Shown in pieces: positions 5,238 through 61,700 of a stretch of DNA of 64,000 nucleotides. The translations under genes were made by a program, and so were the position numbers. Origin of the DNA: a virus; IMG/VR virus record IMGVR_UViG_3300023179_000030, positions 62,001 to 126,000 of that record; one strand, given 5' to 3'. The notes under the pieces are model-generated. The model saw only the letters and a list, made by a program, of their open reading frames with translations, had not been told where the DNA came from and ran no database searches. Numbering within the stretch: position 1 is the stretch's first letter; each line of letters opens with the position of its first letter.

Positions 5238-7226
5238 TTAATTAGCCATTTCTACATCAGCACTATAAGAAGTAAAACCATTGGATTTAACTACTCGTAA
5301 AATGTTGCTAACTCTACTGACAAGGTCATCTTTGTGGGAAACTAGCCAAATTGACTTATTTGTATCACGACTCATTTTTTTAAGTATAGCCAGTGTATTC
5401 TCTGTGCCATTGGAATCCAAACCATTGTCCACCAGTTCATCAATAAACAATAAATTAATGGGTTGATAAAGGCTTTCCCAAACATCACGGAAGGCCCAAC
5501 TTAAACTCAGCACCAGCCTAGTGGTTTCCCCACGACTTAGATTACCATAATCTAATTCTCGCCCATATTCCTCGATACTTACAGTCAAATCATTTAAAAA
5601 CTTAACTGTGTGAGGTAATCCAATCTTGTCAAGATAATATCCCAAACGTGCATTTAAATAACTTAAATTTTGATCAATGATCTTTTTCCTAATAAAACTA
5701 TCTTTATTTGTTAGTAATTTCAATAAAAATTCTTGATGTTCCTTGAACGTTGTTAAATTATTAATGTGATCGTAGCTAATTTCCTGCAAGGCATATTCTT
5801 TCATCTCAGAGATTTGATCCGCATAGGGGTCGATCTCTTCCTTCTTAGCTTTTAATTGAGCAACTACATTTGCTATACTGCTTTTATGCTCGAATGCATC
5901 TGATTCATTGTCATAATATACCTGCGGTTTTTTTGTTAGCTCACCCATAGACTTCAAAGCATCCTCTAATTTGGCTAAATCATTGGTGGTTTTGGAATTT
6001 TGAAGTTTTGCATCTGCCAGTGATTTTTGTTTGCCTAATAATACTTGCTCTTGTTTTTCGTCATGAAATGCTTGACCGCAACTATGGCAAGTGTGATTTT
6101 CCAAGCTTTGTATCTCTAATTCTAACTTTTTAATATCTTTTTGTTCTCTAGACATATCCAATTTACTGCGACGTATTAGTTCAGTAAGATCTGAAATATC
6201 TTTGGATTTTTGTTTGTAAACAGCTAGATCTTTGTGAGCTTTGAGTTCATTTTCTATATCCAACTTGTTTAACTCATCTAAAGCCAGTGATAAATCTGAT
6301 ATATCCTGTGTGTTCTTTTTACGCCATAGGTTTTGTCTACGTATTAGGGCATCTATCTGTTCAGAAATCCTGGCATTGGAATCTTTGACTGATTTAATCC
6401 TAAAATCTTCTTGGGTGATAGCATCTTTGGTTTCACGATTTTGTTCTTTGAGAATCTCAGATTTTTCACTGAGTAAAGTAATGCCCAGTAATTGTTCGAT
6501 GATATTTCTTTGGTCCAGGGCGCGGAGACCCAAAAATGGCTCAGTGTAAGTGTTGAGAACTACAATATGCTTAAACATATCATAGCTCATATTTAATAAT
6601 CGTTCTATGTCCTGCTGAGTTTCTCTACTATCTCCCTGACTGTTGTCATCTTTGGCTTCTTGTAGTTGATCATTGACATAAAACTTCAATATATTGGGTT
6701 TTCTTCCACGTTCTATTTTATAGTTTATGCCGGAACATTCAAAATCTACAGTGACAAGCATACCTTTGCCATTGGTTCTATTGATTAGATTGTCTTTTTT
6801 AATATTGGTTATAGCATGGCCGTATAGACCATAACATAGCCCTTGTATAAGAGTTGTATTGTGGGATAAGATACCATTAGTATAATATCTATGATCATTG
6901 GAATTTACTGTAATATCAAACATGTTTTCTTCAGTCTCTGATACTACTATGCTAACGACTCGATCTAAACCGCAATCAGTTTGTATATATGATAATGGTT
7001 TGATATTTTTAACAAATATCTCGTTAAAATTTTCATCAAATACAATATGATCGTCTGCACACTCCAATCTTTTGCCAGATTCAGTTATCACAGTCCAGAC
7101 CTGATATGGTATAGTTTTCATTATTTTAGAGATAGGATGCCATCCAGAATCGGTTTCAATCTCTAGATTTTGCAAGTCTACAAAATCTATAATTTTTCTT
7201 GTTACCGTGTCAGAAATTGTATGCAT
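5238..7226 (-). CDS. 46: Recombination endonuclease subunit gp46, C-terminal piece preceded by a C-intein
   Basis: Residues 1-123 are the C-terminal part of a split intein, ending in block G His122-Asn123. The remainder, beginning Thr124-Thr-Leu, is the body of gp46, the SMC/Rad50-like ATPase that with gp47 resects DNA ends for recombination-dependent replication. Visible landmarks: two long coiled-coil arms, a Zn-hook CHSC (Cys380, Cys383), the ABC signature LSRGE (563-567) and Walker B LLFIDE (592-597). The Walker A motif is completed only after splicing to the upstream gene, whose stop codon lies in the same frame two codons before this ATG. AAAGG, 7 nt before the ATG, is a good ribosome binding site, so the two genes look translationally coupled. 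Confidence 0.9.
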   Translation of the reverse strand: MHTISDTVTRKIIDFVDLQNLEIETDSGWHPISKIMKTIPYQVWTVITESGKRLECADDHIVFDENFNEIFVKNIKPLSYIQTDCGLDRVVSIVVSETEENMFDITVNSNDHRYYTNGILSHNTTLIQGLCYGLYGHAITNIKKDNLINRTNGKGMLVTVDFECSGINYKIERGRKPNILKFYVNDQLQEAKDDNSQGDSRETQQDIERLLNMSYDMFKHIVVLNTYTEPFLGLRALDQRNIIEQLLGITLLSEKSEILKEQNRETKDAITQEDFRIKSVKDSNARISEQIDALIRRQNLWRKKNTQDISDLSLALDELNKLDIENELKAHKDLAVYKQKSKDISDLTELIRRSKLDMSREQKDIKKLELEIQSLENHTCHSCGQAFHDEKQEQVLLGKQKSLADAKLQNSKTTNDLAKLEDALKSMGELTKKPQVYYDNESDAFEHKSSIANVVAQLKAKKEEIDPYADQISEMKEYALQEISYDHINNLTTFKEHQEFLLKLLTNKDSFIRKKIIDQNLSYLNARLGYYLDKIGLPHTVKFLNDLTVSIEEYGRELDYGNLSRGETTRLVLSLSWAFRDVWESLYQPINLLFIDELVDNGLDSNGTENTLAILKKMSRDTNKSIWLVSHKDDLVSRVSNILRVVKSNGFTSYSADVEMAN
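6858..7226 (-). other. C-terminal half of a split intein (123 residues)
   Basis: It contains block B (ECADDH, His60), a block F-like segment ending in YYTNGIL, and block G SHN. The next residue is Thr, the +1 extein nucleophile. Because block B lies in this half, the break is much closer to the N-terminus than in classical split inteins of the DnaE type. No homing-endonuclease domain is present. Confidence 0.85.
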
Positions 7227-7229
7227 TGT

Positions 7230-7517
7230 TTAACCTTTGTCTTTACAATTTTTTCTAGTGTGTTGTTCCAACGCAGCATTGTATAATTCCCCCATGGTTA
7301 ATTCGGTTATTTCCCCTGTTATGGTATTACGTAACCTTACACTAGTGTTTACTCCAACACATTTACCTGTGCCATTTTTCGCGCCTGAATCTTCTCCGCC
7401 AAGATCTATGTTTTCACCCAAAACTAAGGTTAGATCGGATCGTTCAAAGTTAACTGCTTGAGTATTGTTACCAATGCTAAGAAAATTCCTAGCAGATAAT
7501 GACTTAATTTTAAACAA
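7230..7517 (-). CDS. 46: gp46 N-terminal piece followed by an N-intein
   Basis: A 95-residue product from TTG 7517, which follows AGGA at 9 nt; this start gives MFKIKSLSARNF, a typical gp46 beginning. Residues 1-52 are the N-extein, ending in the P-loop segment KNGTGK. Residues 53-95 are an N-intein beginning with Cys53. The reading frame then meets TAA (7232-7230), one further codon and the ATG of the C-terminal piece, all in one frame. Protein splicing would join Lys52 to Thr of the second protein and restore GKNGTGKTTL-like Walker A (KNGTGK plus TTL). The start overlaps nothing: the gp47 stop ends at 7519. Confidence 0.85.
   Translation of the reverse strand: MFKIKSLSARNFLSIGNNTQAVNFERSDLTLVLGENIDLGGEDSGAKNGTGKCVGVNTSVRLRNTITGEITELTMGELYNAALEQHTRKNCKDKG
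7233..7361 (-). other. N-terminal half of a split intein (43 residues)
   Basis: It begins with Cys1 (CVGVNTSVRL), as in block A of class 1 inteins, and ends at the stop codon after NCKDKG. It is longer than the roughly 25-residue N-halves known from atypical split inteins of phage terminases, but far shorter than the 90-100 residues of classical ones. Insertion is exactly between Lys and Thr of the Walker A motif. Confidence 0.85.
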
Positions 7518-7518
7518 A

Positions 7519-8535
7519 TTACAAGTTCCTATAAATGTCCAATAACAAATTGTTATCAAAATGATCGCTATTAATGGCAGTGAGCTGCTCTGTTACAATT
7601 TGATCAACACTTTGAAATACAATATTTCCCTGTATTTCGTATTTTTCCAAATCTGTATTTTTTTGAGGTATCAAGGCAATCTCTCTAATTTTGTAGTCAG
7701 ATATAAATGTCTCTTTGATAAAATTGGCTTCTTCGTAACTGATGTCTATATCCAAGTTTACACGTACATGCATACCTGGTTTCAATACAGTTTCTGGGCT
7801 AGCCAATATTGCTCCAAGGCCCAGTACCCTATATACCGGTTGTTCTGGCCAAGAATGAAATACGGGATCCTGCCCCCATTCCAAAATCATCATACCTCGT
7901 TCATCGTCGCCGGCGTCAGCATAGTTATGTGGGAAACAATTTCCAATATACGTAATATTCTTATTTTGTTGCCGTTTATGGAAATGACCAGTGAATACAT
8001 GATCAAAATGCCCAAAATGCTCACGTTGTATTTCACCATGATCTGGCATTGCAACCATGGCATTCATATAAAAGTGTGGTAACTCAAAATGGCCAAACAT
8101 ATATTTACCATTGAGTTTTGGTATACGTTTATGATCGTCGCCCACCAACCAAGGCGCAATGACTACATCTCCCTGGGAAAACCAATCATTACAAATCTGT
8201 ACATTTGGTAAGTGTTTGGCCCATTCCACACTTTGAACATCACGTTTGTCTCGGTAGTAGAGGTCGTGGTTGCCGGGAATAAAGAATACTTGATCAAAAT
8301 TGTCGTTTAAATGTTCTAGAGCTTTTAAGCTATAATTCAAGGTCAAAATGTTTATCGAAGCTCGATTATTATGATAATCGCCTAAAAACAAACAGGTTTC
8401 ACAGCCCAGAGATTTTGCTTTGGCAGTGGCCCAACGAATAAAATTCCAACAGTCCTCATTGTGTTGAATACTATTAGACTTTAAACCAAAATGTATGTCG
8501 GTAAAAACTGCTGCTTTTTTGAATAGATTACTCAT
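7519..8535 (-). CDS. 47: Recombination nuclease subunit gp47 (Mre11/SbcD-like)
   Basis: A 338-residue calcineurin-like phosphoesterase, partner of gp46 in end resection. Metal-binding motifs are in order: DIH (Asp13, His15), GDYH (52-55), GNHD (88-91), and a later GHFH. Length matches T4 gp47 (339 residues). I prefer the ATG at 8535, giving MSNLFKKAAVFTDIH, over an upstream TTG at 8565, because the -35 to -10 spacer of a good promoter covers the TTG. There is no clear ribosome binding site, and only 6 nt separate the -10 box from this ATG. The gp46 N-terminal gene follows within 2 nt of the stop. Confidence 0.92.
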   Translation of the reverse strand: MSNLFKKAAVFTDIHFGLKSNSIQHNEDCWNFIRWATAKAKSLGCETCLFLGDYHNNRASINILTLNYSLKALEHLNDNFDQVFFIPGNHDLYYRDKRDVQSVEWAKHLPNVQICNDWFSQGDVVIAPWLVGDDHKRIPKLNGKYMFGHFELPHFYMNAMVAMPDHGEIQREHFGHFDHVFTGHFHKRQQNKNITYIGNCFPHNYADAGDDERGMMILEWGQDPVFHSWPEQPVYRVLGLGAILASPETVLKPGMHVRVNLDIDISYEEANFIKETFISDYKIREIALIPQKNTDLEKYEIQGNIVFQSVDQIVTEQLTAINSDHFDNNLLLDIYRNL

Positions 8536-8541
8536 TGTCTT

Positions 8542-8570
8542 ATTATAGTGAAGATGGCTGAACAAGTCTA
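8542..8570 (-). promoter_or_regulatory. sigma70-type promoter for gp47-gp46
   Basis: On the minus strand, TAGACT (8570-8565), a 17-nt spacer and TATAAT (8547-8542). The -10 box ends 6 nt before the gp47 ATG, so the transcript would begin at or within the start codon. Confidence 0.6.
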
Positions 8571-19730: not shown

Positions 19731-22700
19731 ATGCCAACTACTAAAACATCACCACTACTGCCATCGGTCTTTCAGACTGTAACAAACCAAAAGTTCTTAA
19801 ATGCAACCCTGGATCAGCTGGTTACTGAACCCAATTTAAAACCACTAAACGGTTATGTTGGTAGGAAATTTGCTCCGGGTTTCTCCAGCATTTCGGACTA
19901 TGTGCGTGAACCAGATGCTGCTCGAGCAGATTACCAATTAGAACCCAGCGTTGTGGTCAAAAATACCAATACCGCAGAGGTTGAGTTTCACGTAACCTAC
20001 CCTGAAGTATTGCAGAAAATAAATTATTATGGGGGTAATATAGCAAACCCTGGTCACCTATGGTCCAGCGAATATTATAGCTATACCCCTCACATAAATT
20101 TAGACGCATTTATAAATTTTGGTCAATATTATTGGTTGCCCAATGGGCCAGATTCCGTGCCTGTTATAAGTAACCTAGTAGAATTAGAAAAAACATTTTA
20201 TGTATATCCTGATTCAGGCCTGTCCACATATAATCTAAGTGGATTTGGTACAATATCCAATCCCGACTTGGTATTGACACGTGGTGGAACCTATAAATTC
20301 ATTGTCAATCAAACAGGCAAACCTTTTTGGATACAAAGTGATCCTGGAATTTCTGGCTTGCAAACGTCTAGTAATAACTTATCTAGTAGAGAAATATTGG
20401 GAGTTACAAATAATGGAGAAGATGCAGGCACAGTGACTTTTACTGTTCCAGATAAAACAGCCCAGGATGTTTATATCTCCTTGCCTGTTGTGGATAGCAT
20501 TGACCTAGTAACTACATTGAAGTATTCTCAGATACAGGGCCAATTACTTAGTACTTTAAACACTACTTATGGTGGCATTGATGGGCAAACTTCTAATTTG
20601 AATAATAAGTTGATGGTATTTGGTACTTATTATGCAAATTCTTCAGACTGGACAGCAAACAGTATAACTGTTCCAATTAATCAGAGATATGACATCTGGA
20701 GAATTCAATTGACACCTGTGGGCAGCGATTTTACCGTATCATTAGTATACGTTCAAGATATTCCCATGGTCAATAAAGTAATAGTACAATCAGGCAATAC
20801 TTATGCAAATACTCAGTGGTTTAAAAACGGCAGCGAGTATCTTGAAATAGTTCCCAATATAACTGCAAATTTAGATACACTATATTACCAAGATGGTGTT
20901 AACCCTGGTCAATTTGGTGTAATAAAAATAGTTGATGCAGGCGCTAACATATTAAATGTTACAACTGAAATTCTGGGCAAGCAAAACTACATTAGTCCCA
21001 ATGGCATAAAATTTACCAATGGTTTGAAGGTTAAATTTGATTCAGATGTGATCCCTGCAAAATATCAAAATTCGGAATTTTATGTTGAGGGGGTGGGGGA
21101 CGCCATTACCTTAACTGCGGTCAATGATTTGATAGTTTCTTTCTCTGGGTCAAGGTCGAATTTTGACCCAACGTCGCGCTTCTTGCAAGCTGCCACCAGT
21201 GCAAATTTGAATACTACTAAAACTGAACTAGTGATAACTACTACCGATGTACCAGATGGCACTTCGGTTAAACATGGAGTATTCCCCAATACATCTAATA
21301 CAAATTATATTGTTGAACAAACCTTGGTGTTAACTTACCCATATCGTGGTGGGCTAAATTCTATTGGGGAGCATACCAGCACCACCTTGACTTCTGACCC
21401 AATTGGTGTCACAGTACCAGGCATTTTAATAAATGGTGTCAGCAATCAATGGTATGTGCCGGGCCAAAATGGCAGCACATGGCATTATGATGCCGAACAA
21501 GTTTTAATAAACGGTGAAGATATCTATGGCGGATCTACCGGTGACGCTGGTGATTATCATTATAGAAGCAGTAAATTTATAACAGCCAATGCTTGGGGTA
21601 GTTTAACTGGATTTACCAGTGGTTACACTGAAACAGATGGCCACAGTAAGTTAATTGGTTTTGCGGCAGACGGATATCCTATATATGGGCCATATGGATA
21701 TGCCAATGCCAATAGTTCATTGGGTGGTGTAACGAGAATGACTAGTTCATACACTGCATCAAATACTGGTGCTTACCGGCCAGTTAGTAAAACCGTTACG
21801 GTTACCACTGGAACTACAGGAAATATAATAGTTGTTTCCAGCACCGTGGGTCTGAATCCCGGCATGCGTATCACAATCAATGATGCAGGTATAACCTCTG
21901 GCTCAGTCTGGATACTTAACAATGGGTTGCATACCGCTGTGGGCCCCAGCTTGTTTACAGCAGGTGCCACACAAGTGTTATTGAGTTCAAACGTCACTGT
22001 TACAGCAGGTGCATCATTGACTTTTGAATTTCTGGCCGGTGCATTTATAGAGGATTATACTTATGTACCGGGCTCGGGTACTCTGGACCAATTCAATGGT
22101 AGATACGGAGTAACACCAGACTTTCCCAATAAAACATATGCTTACTTTGCTACAGTTGATACACTGGGCAATCCTGTATATCCATATTTTGTTGGGCAAT
22201 CTTTTTATGGGAGTTTAGAGGCAGATATAAACACAAGTTTATTAGAACCTGACTATATAATTTCTAATAGGTCAAGCACAGATTTGAATCCCTGGAGCAG
22301 ACGTAACCGTTGGTTCCACAGCGATGTTATCTCAATTTCCAATCAATACAATAAAACTACTGCAATACTGGATCAAAACTACAGAGCCAAACGGCCAATT
22401 ATTGAATTCAATCCAAATCTACAGATGTACGATTTTGGAAAACGTGGTCTTGCCCCAGTGGATTTATTTGACACCACAATAACTCAGCCATTTATTGATA
22501 TAGAAGGTGCCTCTAGTTATTATATAGATGATATTAACTTATTCGATGGCATGCGAATTATTTTTGCAGCCGATGCCGACCCACTGACCAGAGGTAAAAT
22601 TTGGGTAGTTAATTTCATTGATGTAGTGGGAACCTCTACATCAGACCCAACTATAATACATTTAACTCTGGCCGACGACGGAGATGTACAGGATAATGAC

Positions 22701-25700
22701 ACTGTCAGTGTGTTCAATGGCTCTAACAATGGTAAAAGCTTTTGGTATCATGATTCACAGTGGGACGAAGGTCAAGCTAAAACTGGTTTAAACCAGGCGC
22801 CTAAATTTGATGTATTTGACAACGAAGGGGTAAGTTTCAGCGACTTAACCAAGTATCAAATAAACAACAATAGTCTAGCATTTACTGGTACAAAGTTGTT
22901 TAGCTACAAGTTGGGCACTGGCAGCGATGATCCGGTCTTGGGTTTCCCACTGAGCTACAAGAATTTTAATAATATTGGGGATATTTTGTTTGAGAACAAT
23001 TTTGATGTTGACACGTTCTCCTACAGAGTTAACTCAGTGGACTATACCAGCAATGTCAATTTGGGATTTTTGCACCGAAATAACAGTGATTCTACCACTA
23101 CCAAATTAAATGTTTGGACTACTGTGGTGGAAGACAGCAAGCAATACCAGGACATATCCTATATCTATGATGGAATAAACAACGAATTTTTGATAGATGT
23201 AAGCCCACAACCAACAGCAACCATACCTAATTTAAAAGTCTATGTTAATTTTAATTTATTGAAGACTGCTGATTATCAAATTTATAATTTGTCGGGGTCC
23301 AATAAAAATATCGCCATAGATAAAACATTAATCAAGGACGGGGATAAAATAGATATATTGGTCTACAGTGAAGAAATAAGCAAAATTGGCTTCTTTGAAA
23401 TTCCCAGTAACTTGAACTTAAATGCTCAGAATACAGTATTGTCCACACCAACATTGGGGGAATTGAGAAACCACATAAGCAAGCTTACACAAAATTCTGT
23501 GTTATTTTCAGGCACATACCCTGGCGCAAGTAATCTCAGGGATATTAATGTAGAAGCGCAGGGCGGTACGATGCTGCAACAAAGTTCACCAACTAGTTTA
23601 GCTTCACTGTTCCTAACTGACGATTCAATGAATTTTGTCAATAGTTTAAATTCTGCATCTCAGGAGTACACTAGATTTAAAAATAAATTTATCACTACAG
23701 CAAGTCAAAGTAACTTAATAGATTACTCAAACCCAGTGGACTCTGTTGACCTAATTATTAAACAGATTAATCAAGTTAAAAACAAATCATTTCCTTGGTT
23801 TTACAGTGATATGGTGCCACACGGCGATAACAAAAACACCATTACTTATACTGTTTATAATACTTTATTGACTAACTATGAAATAACCAATGTATTTTCT
23901 AATACTGAATTAAGTAATCAAGCCTGTTTGGTTTATCTAAATGGAATTCAGCTTTTATACGGAATTGATTATACATTTTTAACTACTGGGCCAGGTGTGC
24001 AATTGACCAGTCAAGTGTCATTAACAGTGGGAGACGTTATAACTATTGTTGAATACAATGACACAGATGGAAATTGGATTCCTGAAACTCCTACAAAATT
24101 GGGACTATACCCAAAGTTTACTCCCAAGTTATATGTTGATTATACATATCTAACTCCACAAACAATGATACAGGGTCACGATGGTAGTCTAACTCCTGCA
24201 TTTGGTGATTTCCGTGACGATTTGATTTTAGAATTAGAAAAAAGAATTTACAACAATATCAAATCTAATTATGATTTTAAGTCATTTAATATATTTGACA
24301 GCAAGCCTGGAAAATTCAGAGATACAGGATACAGCCAATCAGATTTTAATAACATTGTGGCCAAGGGTTACTTGCCCTGGATAGGATTCAATAGATTAGA
24401 CTATAGCACTAACAGCACCTATGATAGCACAAACGCATTTACCTTTAACTATAGCAAAGCGTTAGATGTCATCGACGGTAAACAATTGCCGGGATCATGG
24501 CGTGCGTGTTTTGAATATTTCTATGATACTCAACGTCCCAATACTAACCCCTGGGAGATGTTGGGTTTCAGTGAGCAACCTGAATGGTGGGAGGAAACCT
24601 ATGGGCCAGCCCCATATACTTCAGGAAATCTTGATTTGTGGACAGATTTGCAAAATGGGTATATTGCCGGAGGCGATCGTGCTGGTATTGATACTAAATT
24701 TGCACGACCTGGGTTATTAAGCATTATTCCAGTAAATGAAAATGGTCAATTAATACCCCCTCAGGGATTGTTAACGTCCAAATATAATACCAGTGATTTC
24801 AATAGAAACTGGGCAGTTGGGCAATACAGCCCCACTGAAACTGCTTGGCGAAACTCCAGTGAATATCCGTTTGCGGTGCAATTGATGATGGCGCTTACTC
24901 AGCCCGCAAAGTATTTTGCATTAGCTGCAATGCCTGACAAATATCGTTATAATTCTGAACTGAAACAGTATTTAAATACTGAAACTAATAGAAGATTAAA
25001 TCAGTCTGACATCGTAATCAACGGTGATTTTGACTCGGGTATAATTTCACGTAGTGCAGGGTATATTAATTGGATTGGGGATTACCTAACTACGCTGGGT
25101 ATAACATCCAAGGCAAATTTAAAACACTATATCTCTGACTATACAATACAGTTGTCATATAGAATGGCGGGATTCAGTGGTAAACAATATCTAAAAGTAT
25201 TGGCCGAGCAAAATAGCCCTAATAGTATCAATGAATCGATTTTGATACCTGACAGTGATTTTGATTTAATATTAAACAAGTCTACCCCTGTATCAAATCC
25301 TAGATATAGTGCGGTGATAGTGGAAAAAACAGCTACAGGTTATAAACTCAGTGGTTACGATAATCGAAACCCTTACTTTACAGTGGTGCAGCCAGCGATT
25401 ACTGGTGATTATAAAGTTATTGAAGTATTGTCTTCTTCAGTTAACTACTATACTACCTTTACTAACTATAAAGTAAGTATACCCTATGGTACTGAATTTG
25501 CCAATGTACAACAGATTGCTGGGTTTTTGGCAGGATATGAGAGATATCTAATAGCTCAGGGATTTAGATTTGACTATTATGATTCTGATTTGGGTCAAAT
25601 TCGCAATTGGGAATTGAGTATAAAAGAATTTATGTTCTGGCAGAAGCAGAATTGGCCAGTATCCAGCATACTTGTACTGGGCCCCGCAGCTGATATAATT

Positions 25701-28700
25701 ACTCTATCAAATACAAATGCAGCAGTAGACGAAATAATGAATTCATACTATGGCAGCAAAATAATGACTCAAAATTTTGTGGTCTTAGATTCTGACTCCT
25801 ATAGTGTGTTGCGTGACGGTAACGTTTTTAGGGTTAATCTAGACACCAAAAACGGCGACCTAATTGCGTTTGCTGATTTTAATTTGGTTCAATACGAACA
25901 TGTTTTAATTTGCAATAATAAAACTCAATTTAACGATGTTATCTACGATCCGGCAATGGGTCAACGACAATTCCGACTAAAATTGGTGGGAGCAAAAACT
26001 GGCGGCTGGACTGGTACATTGACCCCTGAGGGTTATATGTATAACAAGCCCGGAGTTCCATCATGGAGAGCTGCTACCGACTATTTGCGTGGTGACCTAA
26101 TAGAATATAAGAATTTTTACTATACAGCTATTGCAGATATACCCGGCACAACAGATTTTAACTCCAATAATTGGTTACCTGTGGATAAAAACAAAATTAA
26201 ATCTGGGTTACTCAACAATTTAGCAACCAATGCAGGCGCGGCGGTTAATTTTTATGATACTGATATAGTTAATTTAGAATCCAAATTTGATTTGTATAGT
26301 TTAGGACTAATAGGGTATAGAAATCGTAGCTATTTAAATGACCTTGGGTTAGATGACACCAGTCAAGTTAAATTTTATCAGGGCTTTATTAAAGAAAAAG
26401 GCACACTAAATGCCATTGATGCCTTGGGTAAAGTCAGTTTTACTGGGCAAGACAGCAATGTTGAGATATCAGAAAAATGGGCATTTAGAGTTGGCAACTA
26501 TGGCAGTTTGGGTACTAATCAATTTGTAGAAATGGTACTCGATGAAAACTACGTTTTAAATAATCCAACTAGTTTAGCGGTACTGAGCAATAATACTGTA
26601 GTTTATTCATCAATATATAGTGATGATACTGCCTTGTTCAAAACTTCTGAATCAAATTGGGCTCCGCCTTTTCTACTGAATCGAAACAGCAATAGTAATC
26701 GCAGCGATGATATTCAGACTGCAGGATTTGTGAATATCGACGACGTAGACTATACTGTCTTTGATCTTAATGATACCGCATCATTGAGTACGGACATAAG
26801 CAACATAGGAGTGGGGTCCATTATATGGGCCGCCAAGGATTATACCCAAAAATGGAATGTTTTTAGAGTCAATGAGAATCAAACCAATGTCATTGAGATT
26901 TACAATGGGTTAGACAATAAATTGTTGATGGTTACTGATACCCCTCACTCTTTAAGTATTGATGATGCAATAGTTATTAATAATGCTGACACATTTAATG
27001 GCTTTTATAGAGTGCAGACAGTTGAATCACAGACCACATTTACCGTGTTGTATTCTGGGTCTCTGACTGGATTTAGCACTGTGACCTTATTGTGTCCGTT
27101 GTATAAATTAAGCAGTCTACGTGTAAAATATGCCAGCGACATTACCTCATTGCCAATGTCTACCCCAGGCTGGCAAGATGATGATAAAGTTTGGGTGGGG
27201 GAAGATTCATCAACTGTAGAATGGGCAGTGTATAATAAGTCATCTCCCTGGGCTGCACAATCTGCACTACCACGTGGCGCAATATATAGCAATGACAAAT
27301 TTGGTTCTACAGTGGTATTGAGTTTAGATAATAACTTTGCGGCTGCTGGTGTTCCGGGTTTCAGTTCCAATGTAGGAGCTATTGTAAATTACGTAAGAAC
27401 TGTGTCTGGAGATCTATTGGAGGACCAAACATTTGTTTCATTGGCCAATGCCACAGTGAACATGGGTTCAAGTTTAGCCAATGGTAACAAATATTTAATA
27501 ACCGGTGCACCAGGCAGCTCAACAAACCGCGGCTATGCATTTGTGTACAATCGTTCAACTTCTGGTCAATTAACACCATATCAAATTTTGACCACAAGTT
27601 CAGCATCCAGTGGAAAATTTGGTTACAGTGTAGCCATAAGTAAAGATGATCAATGGGCATTTGTTGGATGCCCAGGTACTGATACTGTTGCAGTCTACGG
27701 ATTTGACTCAACTATAAGCACAGTAACACAGACTATTATTGCCAATGGTGTACTGACATCTTTCGCCCTGTCATTTACTCCGGCCAGCGCTGAGCTTCTT
27801 TATGTGTCGTCATCATTGACTTCTTATGTACCCTATGTTGATTATACTATAACAGGCTCCACCATAGTATTTTCTACTGCTCCTGCAGCATCTAGTATTG
27901 TGATAAGACAACGAGCCGGCTTTAAGTATTTTACCACAATTTCCTATTCTGGAACTGGCAGCAATTTTGGCTTTAGTCTAGCATGTTCAACAGAAGGTGC
28001 TCAGGTTGTAATAGGTGCGCCATTGGCCACCGTTACGTATAATTCAACCCCACTAACTAAGTCAGGCTCAGTTATTGTATATAATAGGTCAGTGGATAAT
28101 TTTATAGCCATAGCAAATCAAACTATATTTGGCGGCTCTACTATATCTTTGACTAATTTTAACAAAGTCTATATAGATGGAGTATTAAAAACTATAGCAG
28201 TTGATTATATAATAGCGGCGTCAACTAAAGTGCAATTCAATACTCCGCTGACCGCTGGGCAAGTGGTTACTATTGAAACTAACTCATTCAATCGAATTGG
28301 TGAGTACACCCCCAAGGTTCCCACTGCGCTGAGCCAATTTGGCTACAGTGTTGATATATGTCCAAATAACTGTAGTGTATATATTGGAGCACCATACAAG
28401 TCAACTACCAAATATTTTACAGGATCTGCATATAGGTTTTTAAATCAGGGCAGAGTCTACGGTACTATAACTGGTACTGTTAGTAACCCAACTGTTAACA
28501 GTGGAGATTCTATACGTATTAATAATTTTGAAGTGGTCTTCACTACAACATCATTGGGATCGGTAGTAAATGCTATCAATGCCACCCTAATACCTGGAGT
28601 CACTGCATCAGCAGTAAATGGCTATTTGAAATTAGATAGCATATCAACTTTGTCAGCTGATAAACTTAGGATATTACCTGGTGTTGGCAGTGCGATTACA

Positions 28701-31700
28701 GATTTAGGATTGAAGACTTTTGTTGAAACTGAGGAAATCTCAAATCCAACAGGTAATGCCTATGATTACTTTGGCCAAAAGGTAAAAATAAACACCAACA
28801 GCGATGTATTGGGTGTGGGTAGTACTGAAGCCACCACAATAGTGCCAACTACTTTTGACCTAACAACTAAAGTTACCACATTTGATTCCTCATCTACCAC
28901 ATTCAATGATCCTATCCCCAGCGGAGCAGTATGGGTATTGAGTTATCTCAATGATTCTAGGAATAATATAGATCATGCAGGTAAATTTAGCTTTGTACAA
29001 CAATTAACATTGTCTGTTCTTAAAGATCTTGGAATAAGTTTAGCCAACTATGTTAAGTTTGGCAGCGATTTCGCATTTACCAATACTAACTTACTGGTAG
29101 GAGCTTCAGCTGAAAATTCTATAGCTACCAACGGTGGCAGAATTTATCAGTTTAGCAACAGTGAAGAATTAAAGGGCTGGGACGTAGTTAGATCTCAAAC
29201 AGACAAAGTTGACATAGATAGCTTAAAGCGAGCATATATCTATAACACAGATACACAAACTATTCTTTACAATTTGGATTATATAGATCCAGCCAAGGGA
29301 AAGATATTGGGTCAGGCCGAACAGAATATAACCTACAAAACAGATTATGATCCGGCATTCTATAATTATTCCGTTAGTTCAAGTGCAACACTTGACCAGC
29401 AATTTCATTGGAACAGTACACAAGTTGGACAAGTGTGGTGGGATCTGTCTACAGTAAAGTACATTGATTATGAGCAAGGTACCAACAGTTATAGAACTGC
29501 AAACTGGGGAAGAGTTTTTCCTGGTAGTAGCATCAATGTCTATGAATGGGTAGAAAGTTTATACCTACCAAGTTTATATGTAACCAATGGTGGGGACGGT
29601 ATTCCCAAATACCCCGATGATTCCGCTTATGTATTGATGACACATGTAGATCCTGCAACCAATGTGGTAACACTGCGCTATTATTTCTGGGTCAGCGGCA
29701 AAACTTCAGTGAGTTTAGGCCTAGCCAATAGAACTATGCCCATTGTGACTATTGCAGATTATATATCTAACCCCAAGAACAGCGGTATCAAGTATTTGGC
29801 AGCAATTAAAGATGATGCTGTGGCAGTATACAATGTAGTGGGACAAACCACAGGAAAAAGCATTATACTACACATAGACTATGCCACAGAGCTTAACTCC
29901 AATCTGATTCACAGTGAATATGCTTTATTATCGGAAGTTGGTACTAACGTATCTTCGATACCAACAAGTTTGTATAAAAAGTTAGTAGATAGTGCCAGTG
30001 GTATAGATCTATTTGGAAATACAGTACCAGATCCAGCGCTATCAGTGCAAAATAGATATGGTATAAGCGTTAGACCACGACAAAGTATGTTTGTGAACCG
30101 AAAACTGGCGTTAAAAGAAATGGTTTCTTACGTCAATACGGTATTTGCTGAAAACATTATCAGTCAAGGGTTTGATTTAACCAAATTAAGTTCAGGTGAA
30201 CCAATACCAATGTCTGAGTCTGGTGCTTATGATGTTGAAGTGCAAACAATTGAAGAACTGGGTTATCTTGACATAACCTCATTGGCCACCGGATATAAAG
30301 TTTTAGTGGCTACAGACACTTCAGTTAGTGGATTATGGACCATATATACCAAACAGTCATCTAACACTTGGTTGTTAACTCGAAGCCAAAGCTATCGAAC
30401 CACTGATTACTGGCAATATATAGATTGGTATGCTCCTGGATTTGATAAAACCGTACGCCCAGCATATACTGTTAACACACTAGCTGATTTAGCCAATTTA
30501 AAATTAGTGGCTCAGGACATTGTCAAGATTAAAAACAATGGTCAAGGGAAATGGTTATTATTACAAATATTTCCAAATGTAATAAACACCATTGGTATTG
30601 AGTCCGGAACGATTGAATTGAAGTCTAATTTGTACAATTTATCTAACTATAGTATGGGCTATGGCAATGATAATTTTGATTCGGGCCCATTTGATAAGAA
30701 TCCCAATTTAGAAATAAGAATTATCATGGAGGCTCTAAGAGACGATATCTTTATCAATCAACTCAAAGATAAATTTCTGACTTTATTCTTTGTCTTTATC
30801 TATTACATTTTGGACGAGCAAAAATTTGTAGACTGGGTATTTAAAACCAGTTTTATTGATGTGCTTCATAAAATTAAAGGTCTCGCTCAGCCTCAAATTT
30901 ATTCCAAAGAAAATCAAGATTATTACAGGCAATACATTGAGGAAGTTAAACCATATCACACCACGATTCGTGAATATGTGATAGATTATCAGGGAACTGA
31001 TAACTTTACAGGTTATGTGGGTGACTTTGATGTGCCAGCATATTATGACAACACGTTGCAAATGTATAGAAGTCCCAGCGGTGAATTCCTACAAGACATT
31101 GATGCTCTAAACACCGGGTTACAATATAGGGATTGGCTGCTTTCTTATACTTATAGCATCAGTGAAATAACCATAGCCAATGGTGGATCTGGATATACCT
31201 CGGCTCCAACTATAACCATAACTGGCAGTACAATTGGCAATGATGCTTTGGCTCGAGCTACAATTAACAATGGGGCTATAACGGGTGTAGAAATATTATA
31301 CGCTGGGACCAATTATACCTCTCAACCGGTTATAACGGTAACCGGAGGCGGTGGATCTGGTGCTGCGCTCTATGCTAGACTTGGTAATTCTACAACACGT
31401 AAAATGAAAACAACCTTGGTTTATGACAGATTAACCTATGGAACTTCAGTCCAGCTTTGGGCAGCAAATACTGCGTTTACACAGGGAAGTTTGGTGTCTT
31501 ACAATCAAACAGCATATATTGTTGATACTACATTTACCAGTGGTAGCACATTTAGTGCAGATAATCTCACAGTGTACCCAGCTTACAAGTTGGATAACGC
31601 CAACGACAGAATTCAATCCTACTATTCTCCAACTACTGGCCAGCCAGGAAAGGATTTTAGCCTGTTGCAAAGTGGTATAGAGTATCCAGGTCTGATGCTT

Positions 31701-32738
31701 GATGGAACAACTTATACTGGAACTGCTAACATAGATACAACAATTTCCAGCTTATATTCTGACTTGGCACTTGGTACTAGATCTGAGGACATCATCATTG
31801 ATGGCAATGCCTATGTAAGCACTTACAGCAGTCATGCTCCTGAAGAATTGATACCGGGCCGTGTCTATGACACAATGGATATGAAAATAACTACTCTAGC
31901 AGTTAATCCACTATCAGCGGCCTATTCGTATTGGATTTATAACCTAGGATTTTATGTGCTAAGTGTACCAGTAATTGACGGTGGTAGGGGTTACAGTGCT
32001 GGAAATGTCGCAGTTACAATACAAGGCGGGTCTCCCACCACTATTGCAACTGCATCCCCAATCTTGGATGCCAATGGTAGCATAACTTCAATAACACTGG
32101 TAGCTCCTGGCTATAACGGCCAAAGATATTATACCGTTCCAAATGTAGTAATAACAGGATCCAATACAAGCCCGGCTAGAGCAGCAGCCTATCTTGGACA
32201 AACTGACTGGGGAACATTTGATTATCGATTGTTTAAAGACATGAATGATAATTGGCAATTTTTGAAGATACCCAGCGATGGTACAACTACATTGGTAACC
32301 ACTGATGCTTTAACCAACAACTTTTTACAAGTGGCTAATGCTTCTGTGCTATCAGGACCTGATCCCACTGGGGCAAATCCTGGCGTGGTTTATATCAACG
32401 GGGAACGTATTACTTACTGGACTAAAGAATCTACTTATAACACGATGACAAATTTAAGGCGTGGCACTGCTGGTACAGGTGCCAAAGCACATGCTATAGG
32501 TAGTTTGGTAGTGGACGCCGGGGCTTCCCAGATTGTCCCAAGCAGTGATAATTATACTTGGACTCCAAATGCAAATGTGACTAAAACAACCACATCGGGT
32601 GCAACTTATACTTTCCTAGCAAATACACCATATATACGTAGTAATCTATGGTATAATACTGGATCTACCACAGCAACCGATGGTTCAGGGCTGTATAACA
32701 GTACTAAATTGCAGGTTATATTTGTCAAACAGTCTTAG
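19731..32738 (+). CDS. Giant 4335-residue virion protein with YHYH and beta-propeller-like domains
   Basis: One uninterrupted frame of 13 kb following gp6, in the position of T4 gene 7, so a peripheral wedge protein (gp7-like) or fused fibre is likely. Visible parts: an N-terminal region with the short motif LTRGGTYKF near 182; a YHYH-type domain at about 555-690 (GDYHYRSSKF, GHSKLIGFAADGYPIYGPYG); FG-GAP-like beta-propeller repeats at about 2520-3130 (KFGSTVVLS, KFGYSVAIS, NFGFSLACS, QFGYSVDIC, YFGQKVKIN, each about 110 residues apart and followed by a G-A/C-P turn); GGSGYTSAP/GGRGYSAGN repeats near 3817 and 4083; and NGERITYW...LRRGTAGTG near 4225-4250. Surface exposure and receptor or glycan contact are inferred. 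Confidence 0.85.
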   Translation: MPTTKTSPLLPSVFQTVTNQKFLNATLDQLVTEPNLKPLNGYVGRKFAPGFSSISDYVREPDAARADYQLEPSVVVKNTNTAEVEFHVTYPEVLQKINYYGGNIANPGHLWSSEYYSYTPHINLDAFINFGQYYWLPNGPDSVPVISNLVELEKTFYVYPDSGLSTYNLSGFGTISNPDLVLTRGGTYKFIVNQTGKPFWIQSDPGISGLQTSSNNLSSREILGVTNNGEDAGTVTFTVPDKTAQDVYISLPVVDSIDLVTTLKYSQIQGQLLSTLNTTYGGIDGQTSNLNNKLMVFGTYYANSSDWTANSITVPINQRYDIWRIQLTPVGSDFTVSLVYVQDIPMVNKVIVQSGNTYANTQWFKNGSEYLEIVPNITANLDTLYYQDGVNPGQFGVIKIVDAGANILNVTTEILGKQNYISPNGIKFTNGLKVKFDSDVIPAKYQNSEFYVEGVGDAITLTAVNDLIVSFSGSRSNFDPTSRFLQAATSANLNTTKTELVITTTDVPDGTSVKHGVFPNTSNTNYIVEQTLVLTYPYRGGLNSIGEHTSTTLTSDPIGVTVPGILINGVSNQWYVPGQNGSTWHYDAEQVLINGEDIYGGSTGDAGDYHYRSSKFITANAWGSLTGFTSGYTETDGHSKLIGFAADGYPIYGPYGYANANSSLGGVTRMTSSYTASNTGAYRPVSKTVTVTTGTTGNIIVVSSTVGLNPGMRITINDAGITSGSVWILNNGLHTAVGPSLFTAGATQVLLSSNVTVTAGASLTFEFLAGAFIEDYTYVPGSGTLDQFNGRYGVTPDFPNKTYAYFATVDTLGNPVYPYFVGQSFYGSLEADINTSLLEPDYIISNRSSTDLNPWSRRNRWFHSDVISISNQYNKTTAILDQNYRAKRPIIEFNPNLQMYDFGKRGLAPVDLFDTTITQPFIDIEGASSYYIDDINLFDGMRIIFAADADPLTRGKIWVVNFIDVVGTSTSDPTIIHLTLADDGDVQDNDTVSVFNGSNNGKSFWYHDSQWDEGQAKTGLNQAPKFDVFDNEGVSFSDLTKYQINNNSLAFTGTKLFSYKLGTGSDDPVLGFPLSYKNFNNIGDILFENNFDVDTFSYRVNSVDYTSNVNLGFLHRNNSDSTTTKLNVWTTVVEDSKQYQDISYIYDGINNEFLIDVSPQPTATIPNLKVYVNFNLLKTADYQIYNLSGSNKNIAIDKTLIKDGDKIDILVYSEEISKIGFFEIPSNLNLNAQNTVLSTPTLGELRNHISKLTQNSVLFSGTYPGASNLRDINVEAQGGTMLQQSSPTSLASLFLTDDSMNFVNSLNSASQEYTRFKNKFITTASQSNLIDYSNPVDSVDLIIKQINQVKNKSFPWFYSDMVPHGDNKNTITYTVYNTLLTNYEITNVFSNTELSNQACLVYLNGIQLLYGIDYTFLTTGPGVQLTSQVSLTVGDVITIVEYNDTDGNWIPETPTKLGLYPKFTPKLYVDYTYLTPQTMIQGHDGSLTPAFGDFRDDLILELEKRIYNNIKSNYDFKSFNIFDSKPGKFRDTGYSQSDFNNIVAKGYLPWIGFNRLDYSTNSTYDSTNAFTFNYSKALDVIDGKQLPGSWRACFEYFYDTQRPNTNPWEMLGFSEQPEWWEETYGPAPYTSGNLDLWTDLQNGYIAGGDRAGIDTKFARPGLLSIIPVNENGQLIPPQGLLTSKYNTSDFNRNWAVGQYSPTETAWRNSSEYPFAVQLMMALTQPAKYFALAAMPDKYRYNSELKQYLNTETNRRLNQSDIVINGDFDSGIISRSAGYINWIGDYLTTLGITSKANLKHYISDYTIQLSYRMAGFSGKQYLKVLAEQNSPNSINESILIPDSDFDLILNKSTPVSNPRYSAVIVEKTATGYKLSGYDNRNPYFTVVQPAITGDYKVIEVLSSSVNYYTTFTNYKVSIPYGTEFANVQQIAGFLAGYERYLIAQGFRFDYYDSDLGQIRNWELSIKEFMFWQKQNWPVSSILVLGPAADIITLSNTNAAVDEIMNSYYGSKIMTQNFVVLDSDSYSVLRDGNVFRVNLDTKNGDLIAFADFNLVQYEHVLICNNKTQFNDVIYDPAMGQRQFRLKLVGAKTGGWTGTLTPEGYMYNKPGVPSWRAATDYLRGDLIEYKNFYYTAIADIPGTTDFNSNNWLPVDKNKIKSGLLNNLATNAGAAVNFYDTDIVNLESKFDLYSLGLIGYRNRSYLNDLGLDDTSQVKFYQGFIKEKGTLNAIDALGKVSFTGQDSNVEISEKWAFRVGNYGSLGTNQFVEMVLDENYVLNNPTSLAVLSNNTVVYSSIYSDDTALFKTSESNWAPPFLLNRNSNSNRSDDIQTAGFVNIDDVDYTVFDLNDTASLSTDISNIGVGSIIWAAKDYTQKWNVFRVNENQTNVIEIYNGLDNKLLMVTDTPHSLSIDDAIVINNADTFNGFYRVQTVESQTTFTVLYSGSLTGFSTVTLLCPLYKLSSLRVKYASDITSLPMSTPGWQDDDKVWVGEDSSTVEWAVYNKSSPWAAQSALPRGAIYSNDKFGSTVVLSLDNNFAAAGVPGFSSNVGAIVNYVRTVSGDLLEDQTFVSLANATVNMGSSLANGNKYLITGAPGSSTNRGYAFVYNRSTSGQLTPYQILTTSSASSGKFGYSVAISKDDQWAFVGCPGTDTVAVYGFDSTISTVTQTIIANGVLTSFALSFTPASAELLYVSSSLTSYVPYVDYTITGSTIVFSTAPAASSIVIRQRAGFKYFTTISYSGTGSNFGFSLACSTEGAQVVIGAPLATVTYNSTPLTKSGSVIVYNRSVDNFIAIANQTIFGGSTISLTNFNKVYIDGVLKTIAVDYIIAASTKVQFNTPLTAGQVVTIETNSFNRIGEYTPKVPTALSQFGYSVDICPNNCSVYIGAPYKSTTKYFTGSAYRFLNQGRVYGTITGTVSNPTVNSGDSIRINNFEVVFTTTSLGSVVNAINATLIPGVTASAVNGYLKLDSISTLSADKLRILPGVGSAITDLGLKTFVETEEISNPTGNAYDYFGQKVKINTNSDVLGVGSTEATTIVPTTFDLTTKVTTFDSSSTTFNDPIPSGAVWVLSYLNDSRNNIDHAGKFSFVQQLTLSVLKDLGISLANYVKFGSDFAFTNTNLLVGASAENSIATNGGRIYQFSNSEELKGWDVVRSQTDKVDIDSLKRAYIYNTDTQTILYNLDYIDPAKGKILGQAEQNITYKTDYDPAFYNYSVSSSATLDQQFHWNSTQVGQVWWDLSTVKYIDYEQGTNSYRTANWGRVFPGSSINVYEWVESLYLPSLYVTNGGDGIPKYPDDSAYVLMTHVDPATNVVTLRYYFWVSGKTSVSLGLANRTMPIVTIADYISNPKNSGIKYLAAIKDDAVAVYNVVGQTTGKSIILHIDYATELNSNLIHSEYALLSEVGTNVSSIPTSLYKKLVDSASGIDLFGNTVPDPALSVQNRYGISVRPRQSMFVNRKLALKEMVSYVNTVFAENIISQGFDLTKLSSGEPIPMSESGAYDVEVQTIEELGYLDITSLATGYKVLVATDTSVSGLWTIYTKQSSNTWLLTRSQSYRTTDYWQYIDWYAPGFDKTVRPAYTVNTLADLANLKLVAQDIVKIKNNGQGKWLLLQIFPNVINTIGIESGTIELKSNLYNLSNYSMGYGNDNFDSGPFDKNPNLEIRIIMEALRDDIFINQLKDKFLTLFFVFIYYILDEQKFVDWVFKTSFIDVLHKIKGLAQPQIYSKENQDYYRQYIEEVKPYHTTIREYVIDYQGTDNFTGYVGDFDVPAYYDNTLQMYRSPSGEFLQDIDALNTGLQYRDWLLSYTYSISEITIANGGSGYTSAPTITITGSTIGNDALARATINNGAITGVEILYAGTNYTSQPVITVTGGGGSGAALYARLGNSTTRKMKTTLVYDRLTYGTSVQLWAANTAFTQGSLVSYNQTAYIVDTTFTSGSTFSADNLTVYPAYKLDNANDRIQSYYSPTTGQPGKDFSLLQSGIEYPGLMLDGTTYTGTANIDTTISSLYSDLALGTRSEDIIIDGNAYVSTYSSHAPEELIPGRVYDTMDMKITTLAVNPLSAAYSYWIYNLGFYVLSVPVIDGGRGYSAGNVAVTIQGGSPTTIATASPILDANGSITSITLVAPGYNGQRYYTVPNVVITGSNTSPARAAAYLGQTDWGTFDYRLFKDMNDNWQFLKIPSDGTTTLVTTDALTNNFLQVANASVLSGPDPTGANPGVVYINGERITYWTKESTYNTMTNLRRGTAGTGAKAHAIGSLVVDAGASQIVPSSDNYTWTPNANVTKTTTSGATYTFLANTPYIRSNLWYNTGSTTATDGSGLYNSTKLQVIFVKQS

Positions 32739-58771: not shown

Positions 58772-61700
58772 TTATTCAAATGTAAAAAGAGAGTTAAAAG
58801 TGGAATCAATGTCAGTGTTCTCTGTAATGTGCCAGTTGAGTACCCCCAAGAGGTTCTCGACCTTTTGATCCACGATACCAGCTTCCATCAATGAATCATC
58901 GAATGGAAGATCCCTAAACCAACTTGGAATACGAGTTTCGTCAGTGGGGTATCCCACACTGGTATAGCCCATGGGGTTATTTTTTAACTTACATACTATG
59001 GTTTTCATGCCATCTACGATTGCCAAACTGTGATTGTCACCGTGTAATCTCCTAAGATTATTCCAATTCATGGCAGCTCTGACATGACCTGGCATAGAGG
59101 CGCGGCCTTTTACATGTTCTGTTTCTGTGTAATTTGTTAAGTTATTAACCCGTTTTGGTGTTCCTTTTTCCCAGGGTTTTTTATCCTGAAATTTAATTTT
59201 AAACTCTCGAACTTTGGCAATGATCTCATCGCGTTGAGCACCAGTGAGTACGTCTAGTAAAATCTCACTGAGAAAATCTTGGACTACTTTGGGAGTGTCG
59301 CTGCGTTTCAAGTCCAAACCCATGGCCTTGACTTTTCCTGGTTTACCATTGACATCCAACCGCTTACCTTCTTTGTCAATAATAATTGCAGCATAGCGTT
59401 TCTTTTTAATAAACAATCCCTTGCTGGCAACCAGTTCCCTACCGCCTCGGATTATTTCACCCATACTGCGAGGGCAATGAAACGCACGTTCCATAAATCC
59501 AGGAAAACTGGCATTTACTTGGTCTGCAATGTTATCGTAGACTTGAATGCAAGTTTCTTTGTCCCAGGGCATTGTGCCAGCCGCAACCTCAGATTTGACT
59601 ACAGGCCACGCACTGAAATAGACCGAGTCTGTATTATGTAAAAGTATATCATTTCCAAAGAAAAATGGGTCTTGTTTATCTATACTGATATCATAAACAT
59701 AATCATCTATTTCCCCAATACATACTACACTTTTTACCGTTGTGCGTTCAACATCTATTTTGTCACCTTTTGAATGACATAAACAAATAATTAGATCATT
59801 GTCTAAAATTTCAGTTGGTTTAACTTCTATTAGAAAACCATCTCTATCGACCATTACACTATGATCTTCAGTTACTTTGACTATTTTTCCGTTTTCTAGT
59901 GTTATTTCATAAATATTCTTTTTAGTTTTATGACGCATAACATAAGTAATTTCACTCATCACCGGAGAATCTTCAAACGCATTAAACCCAATTACTTTAG
60001 CAAAGGAGTGTGTGCCATATTCTTTGCCTTCTATAATGGAATGATGTTGACATTGATTAAATAACTCCTTGATAGTTATTTCTCCTGAGTCGGTTTTAAT
60101 TTTTGTGTCCTCAGTAACGCTGTCACCATAAATAATTGACTCTCCTCGATGGTCAGCATTTCCAGTTATGATATCGTTAACTGTGGCAGACATATGCTTG
60201 GCTATGGCTCTACCAGTTAACGTAGTTGATTGACCAATTCTTATGTCTGAAAATCTACAACCTGGATTCAAAATTGCACCATACAGTGAATTCAAATTAA
60301 TTTTTTTCACCAATTGCCTTTTGTCCCAGTATTCTATATCTTCAGCATTGCCCGCGGCCTGAGCTTCTTTGAGTTTCTTTTGTAGATCTTTACGTTCAGA
60401 ATACCAACGAGCCAATAAACCTGGTATTATACCAGGTTTTTCATAACTAAAAATGGTCCCATTAGCGCTGAGTATCCAGGGTTTACCACTGTTAAATATT
60501 ATGTTCCAGACTTCGTTGGCAGTAACCGATGAGCTAGTACCATCTGCTTCCCAGTCAATGGTTAAATTTAGTCTGTTATCACCGTTCATAACGGCTTCAT
60601 ACTCCAAACTACCAAACAACCCCTCCCAAGCACCAGAAAATGTTTCACCTGCCAGCATTTTGTCGGAGATGTATTTTTCGGTATGGTCTTGTCTCAATTG
60701 CCCAATGATTGTTTCAGGCCCCATGTTGAGGGCGCGTATGGTTGATGGGTACAGGCTGTTGATGTCGATTGCTCCGATCCATTCATGCATTCCCTTTTTG
60801 GGAGTAGCAACATAGGCACCTGCCGCATGTGTTTCGTCTTCGTCTCGGCCTTTTCTATCAGGAACGACCAATCCTTTGCTGTGTGCTTCATTTATAATTG
60901 CCTGCTCCGTGGTTTGTACTACTCCCATTGTTGTGGGCAACAACACAGTATTGTCGTGTGCAATGGTGTTGACTAAATCTAAAAAACGGAGCTTTCTATC
61001 TAGCTTTGCCAACAAACGAGTATCTTGCCTATTGTATTCAAGGAATTTTTCAAAGTCCCTGTTGTACAATTGATCCAATGTTCCTTCATAGGGCACTTTA
61101 TGTTCATTTAATTCATATTCACCTATGGCATCCAAACTATAACTATGCCGTTCCTCATAATTATATTTTCTATAGAGTTGCATGTAGTCTAAGTGAATCC
61201 TACCTATTAGGTCATAGGTGATATTCTTAGCGCCAAAACGTTCAAACTCTCTAGCTTTGGGATATTGGTCCCACAAGCATAAGCGTCTAGTATCATCTTT
61301 GCTGAGCACTCTAACAATTCTACCCACTGTATAGGGTATATCATAGGTTTCTGAATTCCAACCACTGATGACATCGGCATCATCAATTAAATTTAGAAAG
61401 GAATCCAACATATCTTCTTCACGCTCAAAGATGTAACAATCTTCGAACTTTGAGCATATCTCCAGGGCGGTTTCCCAACTTATTGTTTTGGGTGGCAAAG
61501 CCAATGTCACCAGTCTGTCTAACCAGTCTAGATACACAGATATGGCAGTTATATTATTAAAGGGGTCGCTGGCAGGCGCAAATCCTCGTGAAGGGTGAAA
61601 ATTTGATTCAATGTCGAAAAAAGCAGTATGCAGTTTGGGAGTATCGGCATTTAAATAATTTGTTTCAAGACATCGGTTTACTGGTTTGATGTCGCTTTCC

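What the first reader, a model, noticed from the sequence alone, without database searches (positions are those of the whole stretch)
6858..7361. Atypical split intein inside the Walker A motif of gp46
The gp46 gene is broken by TAA followed one codon later by ATG, in the same frame. The 5' piece ends in a 43-residue N-intein starting Cys; the 3' piece opens with a 123-residue C-intein ending His-Asn, then Thr. Splicing would rebuild KNGTGK-TTL. Block B lies in the C-half, so the split is far nearer the N-end than in DnaE-type inteins, recalling the terminase split inteins from phage metagenomes. A single stop plus an AAAGG site separates the halves, so this may be a recently split intein, and gp46 ATPase activity would depend on trans-splicing. 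Occurrence in gp46 is not something I can confirm as described.
Basis: partly seen in the sequence, partly recalled or inferred. Interest (0 to 1): 0.92.

Follow-up and report, generated by a model that had tools for sequence, protein, structure and literature searches.

The report
Split intein with eroded homing gene
In this uncultured T4-like phage the recombination ATPase gp46 is made as two proteins, each carrying half of a self-splicing intein; relatives show that the gene was split long ago around a homing-endonuclease gene, and that here this gene has been deleted down to a 25-codon remnant, so the split is not a new stop mutation.

Summary
On the minus strand gp46 is two ORFs: a 52-residue N-extein plus 43-residue N-intein (Cys1), then TAA-ACA-ATG, then a 123-residue C-intein (…SHN) and 539-residue C-extein. 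Removing the intein gives a gp46 that aligns without gaps to intein-less relatives. The read-through intein folds confidently as a HINT domain (pLDDT 91.7), disordered only at the split, which lies after the first helix as in AceL-/GOS-TerL. 61 of 63 long-spacer relatives (gp46 and terminase) keep a ~1 kb homing-endonuclease-like ORF between the halves, in gp46 overlapping both in the +1 frame. In the window the +1 frame reads MLRWNNTLEKIVKTKVKQCIQFLTR*, the two ends of that ORF joined; the TAA is the stop found there in about half of the nuclease-bearing relatives. Six other loci also have a short spacer; one (L090 vs L091, 95-96% identical) is a clear ~0.92 kb deletion. All seven stay split. 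The C-intein is 76% identical to L082's while the host genes share 52%, suggesting horizontal mobility. Trans-splicing is inferred, not shown.

The parts
7362..7517 (-). N-extein of gp46 (52 aa from TTG 7517; ends GAKNGTGK, first part of Walker A)
   Evidence: PHROG 77 positions 296-333; relatives start MFKIK at this place
7233..7361 (-). N-intein, 43 aa, Cys1; about the first 30 aa are shared with distant relatives, the rest overlaps the HEG remnant
   Evidence: Cys1 in 14 of 14 N-halves
7230..7232 (-). TAA stop ending the N-ORF; at the same spot as the stop 5' of the C-ORF start in many HEG-bearing relatives
7234..7238 (-). AAAGG, possible ribosome-binding site for the C-ORF
   Evidence: sequence; 7 nt between it and the ATG
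7202..7279 (-). HEG remnant in the +1 frame: MLRWNNTLEKIVKTKVKQCIQFLTR*, both ends of the relatives' 367-369-codon ORF
   Evidence: 35-nt middle part matches HEG start and end; combined score reached by 1 of 1000 shuffles
6858..7226 (-). C-intein, 123 aa from ATG 7226, ends SHN; block B CADDH, block F NDHRYY
   Evidence: (TIGR01443 20.1-20.5 bits, cut-off 15.6)
5238..6857 (-). C-extein of gp46 (539 aa, Thr+1, TTLIQG completing Walker A; LSRGE signature and LLFIDE Walker B present)
   Evidence: PHROG 77 from position 334, 2.7e-83
7519..8565 (-). gp47 (SbcD-like nuclease subunit), just upstream of gp46, as in the relatives
   Evidence: phrog_100 3.8e-58

Best explanation
gp46 (phage Rad50) is interrupted in its Walker A loop (NGTGK^TTL) by a class-1-type intein that is permanently split after its first helix. 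Two proteins are made from adjacent, probably translationally coupled ORFs (TAA-ACA-ATG with AAAGG). They associate, the HINT domain forms, and Cys1, Asn123 of the C-half and Thr+1 carry out trans-splicing, giving intact gp46 (inferred). The element belongs to a mobile family in which a free-standing EDxHD/Vsr-like homing endonuclease gene (HEG) lies between the halves and, in gp46, overlaps both in the +1 frame ('fractured gene' layout). In this phage the HEG has been lost by a net in-frame deletion of about 1.03 kb that kept only the ends sharing DNA with the intein halves, leaving a 25-codon remnant and an endonuclease-free split intein.
For: Halves, junctions and gap-free spliced alignment. 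HINT fold: AF2 pLDDT 91.7, below 50 only at residues 46-53 by the split; best PDB hit VidaL (3.2e-9), Cat with atypical split also found; viral library best hits are continuous TerL inteins. Catalytic residues conserved. Family layout: 63 of 70 distinct N..C loci have a long spacer, 61 with an ORF of at least 250 aa; longest ORF in the +1 frame in 60 of the 63. Remnant. Same TAA in relatives. Parallel cases: L119 (another joined remnant), L090 (919 nt shorter than L091, 95-96% identical on both sides), L133, L141. Seven scattered short-spacer loci, seven parsimony changes. HEG fold: I-Bth0305I catalytic domain, probability 0.99, and Vsr, 0.95-0.96. Mobility: C-intein 75.6% but C-extein 51.8% identical to L082, while the nearest host gene is intein-less L005, 68.4%; L090/L091 intein dS about 0.1 against 1.35 for the C-extein. 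pN below pS in both halves in the window comparisons.
Against: No splicing or expression data. The tree of C-inteins has few columns and does not resolve the window's place; starred branches force only 2 changes, not 7. The remnant's middle part is only 35 nt, and its match to the HEG start needs a 1-nt gap. The outer parts of the +1 ORF are partly dictated by conserved intein codons. L151 and L156 show no clear remnant. HEG fold hits have weak E-values (0.2-0.3). Whether the family's ancestor was split or continuous is not known (continuous TerL inteins exist).
Confidence: 0.85

Rival explanations
1. A continuous mini-intein was recently split by a nonsense mutation plus a new start site.
For: Both halves are in one frame with only TAA-ACA between them; continuous relatives exist in terminases of Ackermannviridae.
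Against: All gp46 relatives found are split, nearly all with a HEG; the TAA is at the position of the old 5' stop; the +1 frame holds HEG start and end; no continuous mini form at gp46.
Confidence: 0.05
2. The short form is ancestral: the HEG later invaded a split intein and its ends grew into the intein halves.
For: The ends of the HEG frame are partly fixed by conserved intein codons, so some likeness is expected anyway; the window's place in the tree is open.
Against: The unconstrained 35 nt resemble both HEG ends (1 of 1000 shuffles); short forms are scattered among HEG-bearing ones; L090 is clearly a deletion.
Confidence: 0.07
3. The gene is a decaying pseudogene; the two halves no longer splice.
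For: No functional data; the HEG is gone.
Against: Catalytic residues intact; pN well below pS in N-intein, C-intein and exteins; Walker A/B and signature motifs intact in the exteins; gp46 is part of the core gp46/gp47 recombination nuclease; good fold.
Confidence: 0.04
4. Assembly artefact joining two ends of a HEG-bearing locus.
For: Metagenome contig, no reads available.
Against: Junction sequence is diverged from all HEG-bearing loci found; six other contigs have short spacers.
Confidence: 0.02

Closest known systems
AceL-TerL and GOS-TerL atypically split inteins
   Same: Short N-intein, split after the first helix ('S2' position, PMC13014065); GOS-TerL N-intein is 37 aa and can be cut to 27 (PMC11766414), like the 43 aa here (32-43 in most relatives) with about 30 shared; phage-type host gene with the same intein family in terminase relatives found here.
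   Different: Host gene is gp46 here; close relatives carry a HEG between the halves and the window keeps its remnant; Cys1/Thr+1 rather than the Ser1/Cys+1 of GOS-TerL.
'Fractured genes' with split inteins and a free-standing nuclease (Dassa et al. 2009, not held in the library; known from its title and from memory)
   Same: N-half, free-standing homing endonuclease gene, C-half; endonuclease of Vsr/EDxHD type.
   Different: Split near the N end; HEG overlaps both halves; in the window the HEG is reduced to 25 codons.
VidaL intein (PDB 6vgv)
   Same: Closest solved structure by fold and by sequence profile; atypically split with a short N-part.
   Different: Split earlier (N-part 16 aa, 'S1' site, PMC13014065).
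TerL inteins of Ackermannviridae (Kuja, AG3)
   Same: Homologous intein (43-46% identical over the C-part), also after the P-loop GK.
   Different: Continuous mini-intein without HEG; terminase host gene.
EDxHD homing endonuclease I-Bth0305I / Vsr
   Same: C-terminal nuclease domain fold of the relatives' HEG.
   Different: I-Bth0305I is known from a group I intron, not an intein (own knowledge); no sequence hit for the HEG in PDB.

Membership tests
Class 1 intein (HINT domain) | Cys/Ser at position 1, block B His, C-terminal His-Asn, Cys/Ser/Thr at +1 | tested here: met
   Cys1, CADDH, SHN, Thr+1; conserved in relatives
Class 1 intein (HINT domain) | HINT fold | tested here: met
   AF2 of the read-through intein pLDDT 91.7; PDB inteins up to E 3e-9
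Class 1 intein (HINT domain) | Curated family score | tested here: inconclusive
   TIGR01443 above cut-off; PF14890 18.7 bits below 35.8
Naturally split intein | Halves encoded by separate ORFs and able to trans-splice | tested here: inconclusive
   Separate ORFs shown; splicing not testable here
Atypical S2 split (AceL/GOS-TerL type) | Split after the first helix, N-part roughly 25-40 aa, C-part holding block B | tested here: met
   Helix 23-40, disorder 46-53, block B at read-through residues 101-105; N-part 43 aa, of which about 30 shared
Fractured gene layout | Free-standing homing endonuclease gene between the halves | tested here: not met
   Absent in the window, only a 25-codon remnant; met in the relatives. 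So the window is a derivative of the layout, not a full member
gp46/Rad50 (SbcC-like) | Family match and Walker A restored by splicing | tested here: met
   PHROG 77 continuous 333|334; 591-aa gap-free alignment to L005

The most novel reading that the evidence does not exclude
Endonuclease-free, atypically split inteins arise repeatedly by collapse of fractured genes: the HEG is deleted, but because its ends overlap the intein halves, only its core can go and the split persists. Such loci may then be kept because two-piece gp46 adds control over recombination.
Probability: 0.4. Interest if true: 0.75.

Novelty: new variant of a known kind. Interest (0 to 1): 0.6.

Why it matters
[quoted passage not shown] How split inteins without an endonuclease arise is then open. 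Here intermediates are in hand: HEG-bearing fractured genes, a near-identical pair with and without the HEG, and joined HEG remnants in two gp46 lineages. It also shows one intein family in the P-loops of two different phage ATPases (gp46 and TerL), with host gene and intein histories that disagree. The short N-half makes the pair a candidate tool for protein ligation, and gp46/gp47 would depend on protein splicing for ATPase activity.

Tried and rejected
Continuous gp46 intein among relatives: none; the only stop-free N..C span (L152, terminase) is the HEG read in the wrong frame. Bacterial genomes: no relative of the C-intein. PDB sequence match for the HEG: none. Pfam on the HEG: only sub-threshold nuclease-like hits. 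Literature for an intein in gp46: no paper holds 'split intein' and 'gp46'; of five holding 'intein', 'gp46' and 'phage' two were searched and the passages shown describe none. Dassa 2009 and Bachmann 2015 are not held, so an earlier mention of gp46 there cannot be excluded. Cultured phages: the 15 best gp46 hits start at query residue 117 or 124, i.e. essentially without the intein; the other 2639 were not inspected. A second nuclease of this family elsewhere in the 126-kb record: none.

Full report
What is there. On the minus strand, behind gp47, gp46 is encoded by two ORFs. The first ends ...NGTGK followed by 43 residues starting with Cys; the second opens with 123 residues ending SHN, followed by TTLIQG. 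TAA, ACA and ATG follow each other in one frame. PHROG 77 (SbcC-like) is matched up to position 333 by the first ORF and from 334 by the second after the C-intein, and the protein without the intein aligns to an intein-less gp46 (L005) over 591 residues at 68.7% with no gap. The N-ORF probably starts at TTG 7517.

Is it an intein? Cys1, block B (CADDH), block F (NDHRYY), SHN and Thr+1 are present and conserved in relatives. AlphaFold2 on the two halves read through (TAA as Q) gives a HINT fold with pLDDT 91.7; the only stretch below 50 is residues 46-53, after the first helix (23-40), where the split lies. Foldseek finds solved inteins (VidaL 3.2e-9) and viral terminase inteins. The split position is the one described for AceL-TerL and GOS-TerL (PMC13014065, PMC11766414). 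The window is therefore an atypically split intein by sequence and predicted fold; trans-splicing itself is inferred.

What relatives show. Scans of viral contigs with gp46, with the C-intein and with the intervening ORF gave many relatives. Of 70 distinct loci with both halves, 63 have 981-1358 nt between the start of the N-intein and the C-ORF, 61 of them with an ORF of at least 250 aa, nearly always in the +1 frame. In the gp46 loci compared in detail this ORF has 363-369 codons; its start overlaps the end of the N-intein and its end overlaps the start of the C-intein. Its C-terminal domain resembles the EDxHD homing endonuclease I-Bth0305I and Vsr (probability 0.99 and 0.95-0.96, but E 0.2-0.3). 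I call it a HEG; cleavage is not shown. This is the layout called 'fractured gene'. The host genes are gp46 and, in another large part, terminase large subunit, in most cases after the P-loop GK.

What happened in the window. The HEG is missing, but the +1 frame across the split reads MLRWNNTLEKIVKTKVKQCIQFLTR*; the HEG of L013, for example, starts MPRWNNNLESNC... and ends ...KEVIKQCIQFLTQ*. Part of this likeness follows from overlapping conserved intein codons. The 35 nt not bound in this way also match: anchored gapped scores to the HEG start and end are reached together by 1 of 1000 shuffles (start alone 3, end alone 42); the ungapped test gave 193 of 20,000. The net loss against a 367-369-codon HEG is about 1.03 kb and keeps one frame; small extra indels cannot be excluded. 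The TAA that looked like a splitting mutation is at the position of the in-frame stop seen within 9 nt upstream of the C-ORF in 33 of 64 HEG-bearing loci, e.g. AAT-TAA-ACA-ATG in L013.

Not a single case. Six other loci have short spacers. L119 (gp46) holds another joined remnant; L090, L133 and L141 keep the HEG tail; L151 and L156 show none. L090 and L091 are 95-96% identical on both sides of a 919-nt difference, a clear deletion. On the C-intein tree the seven short-spacer loci need seven changes, though starred branches force only two and the window's own place is unresolved. All remain split. The only stop-free span, L152, is the HEG read out of frame.

Mobility. The window's C-intein is 75.6% identical to that of L082, but the C-exteins are 51.8% identical, and the nearest host gene is the intein-less L005 (68.4%). 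Intein presence on the C-extein tree needs at least four to five changes. In L090/L091 the intein has dS about 0.1, the C-extein 1.35. This points to horizontal movement of the element between gp46 alleles, as expected of homing; co-inheritance with different rates is a weaker alternative.

How it most likely works. Shown: separate ORFs, intact intein motifs, predicted fold, family layout, HEG remnant. Inferred: coupled translation from TAA-ACA-ATG with AAAGG, assembly of the halves, trans-splicing, dependence of gp46 ATPase on it. [quoted passage not shown] A deletion inside the HEG leaves both intein halves intact and so escapes this limit; that the overlap of HEG ends with intein codons bounds the deletion is my inference.

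Novelty. Atypically split inteins and fractured genes are known. Not found in the library: an intein in gp46, and a remnant showing HEG loss with the split kept. The founding paper on fractured genes is not held, so priority for gp46 cannot be claimed. I class it as a new variant of a known kind.

Noticed in passing
window 58772-61861 (-): Family-B DNA polymerase with a second, continuous mini-intein in the YGD^S...HN^TDS site (Ser1, Thr+1; Pfam Intein_splicing 3.3e-13, residues 593-743).
   Followed up: partly
L090 4753-5372 vs L091 3834-5372: Near-identical inteins in clearly more diverged gp46 genes; one has the HEG, the other a 919-nt deletion.
   Followed up: yes
L152 4011-4992: Terminase intein in which frame 0 is open through the whole HEG region, although the HEG is read in the +1 frame.
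   Followed up: partly
L095, L115: gp46 loci whose HEG is interrupted (longest ORF 198 and 208 aa), perhaps earlier stages of HEG decay.
   Followed up: no
L236 3620-4642 (Caulobacter phage Cr30): HEG-like ORF (37% identical) just upstream of an intein-less terminase gene in a cultured phage.
   Followed up: partly
window 19731-32738 (+): Single ORF of 4335 codons amid structural genes; not examined.
   Followed up: no
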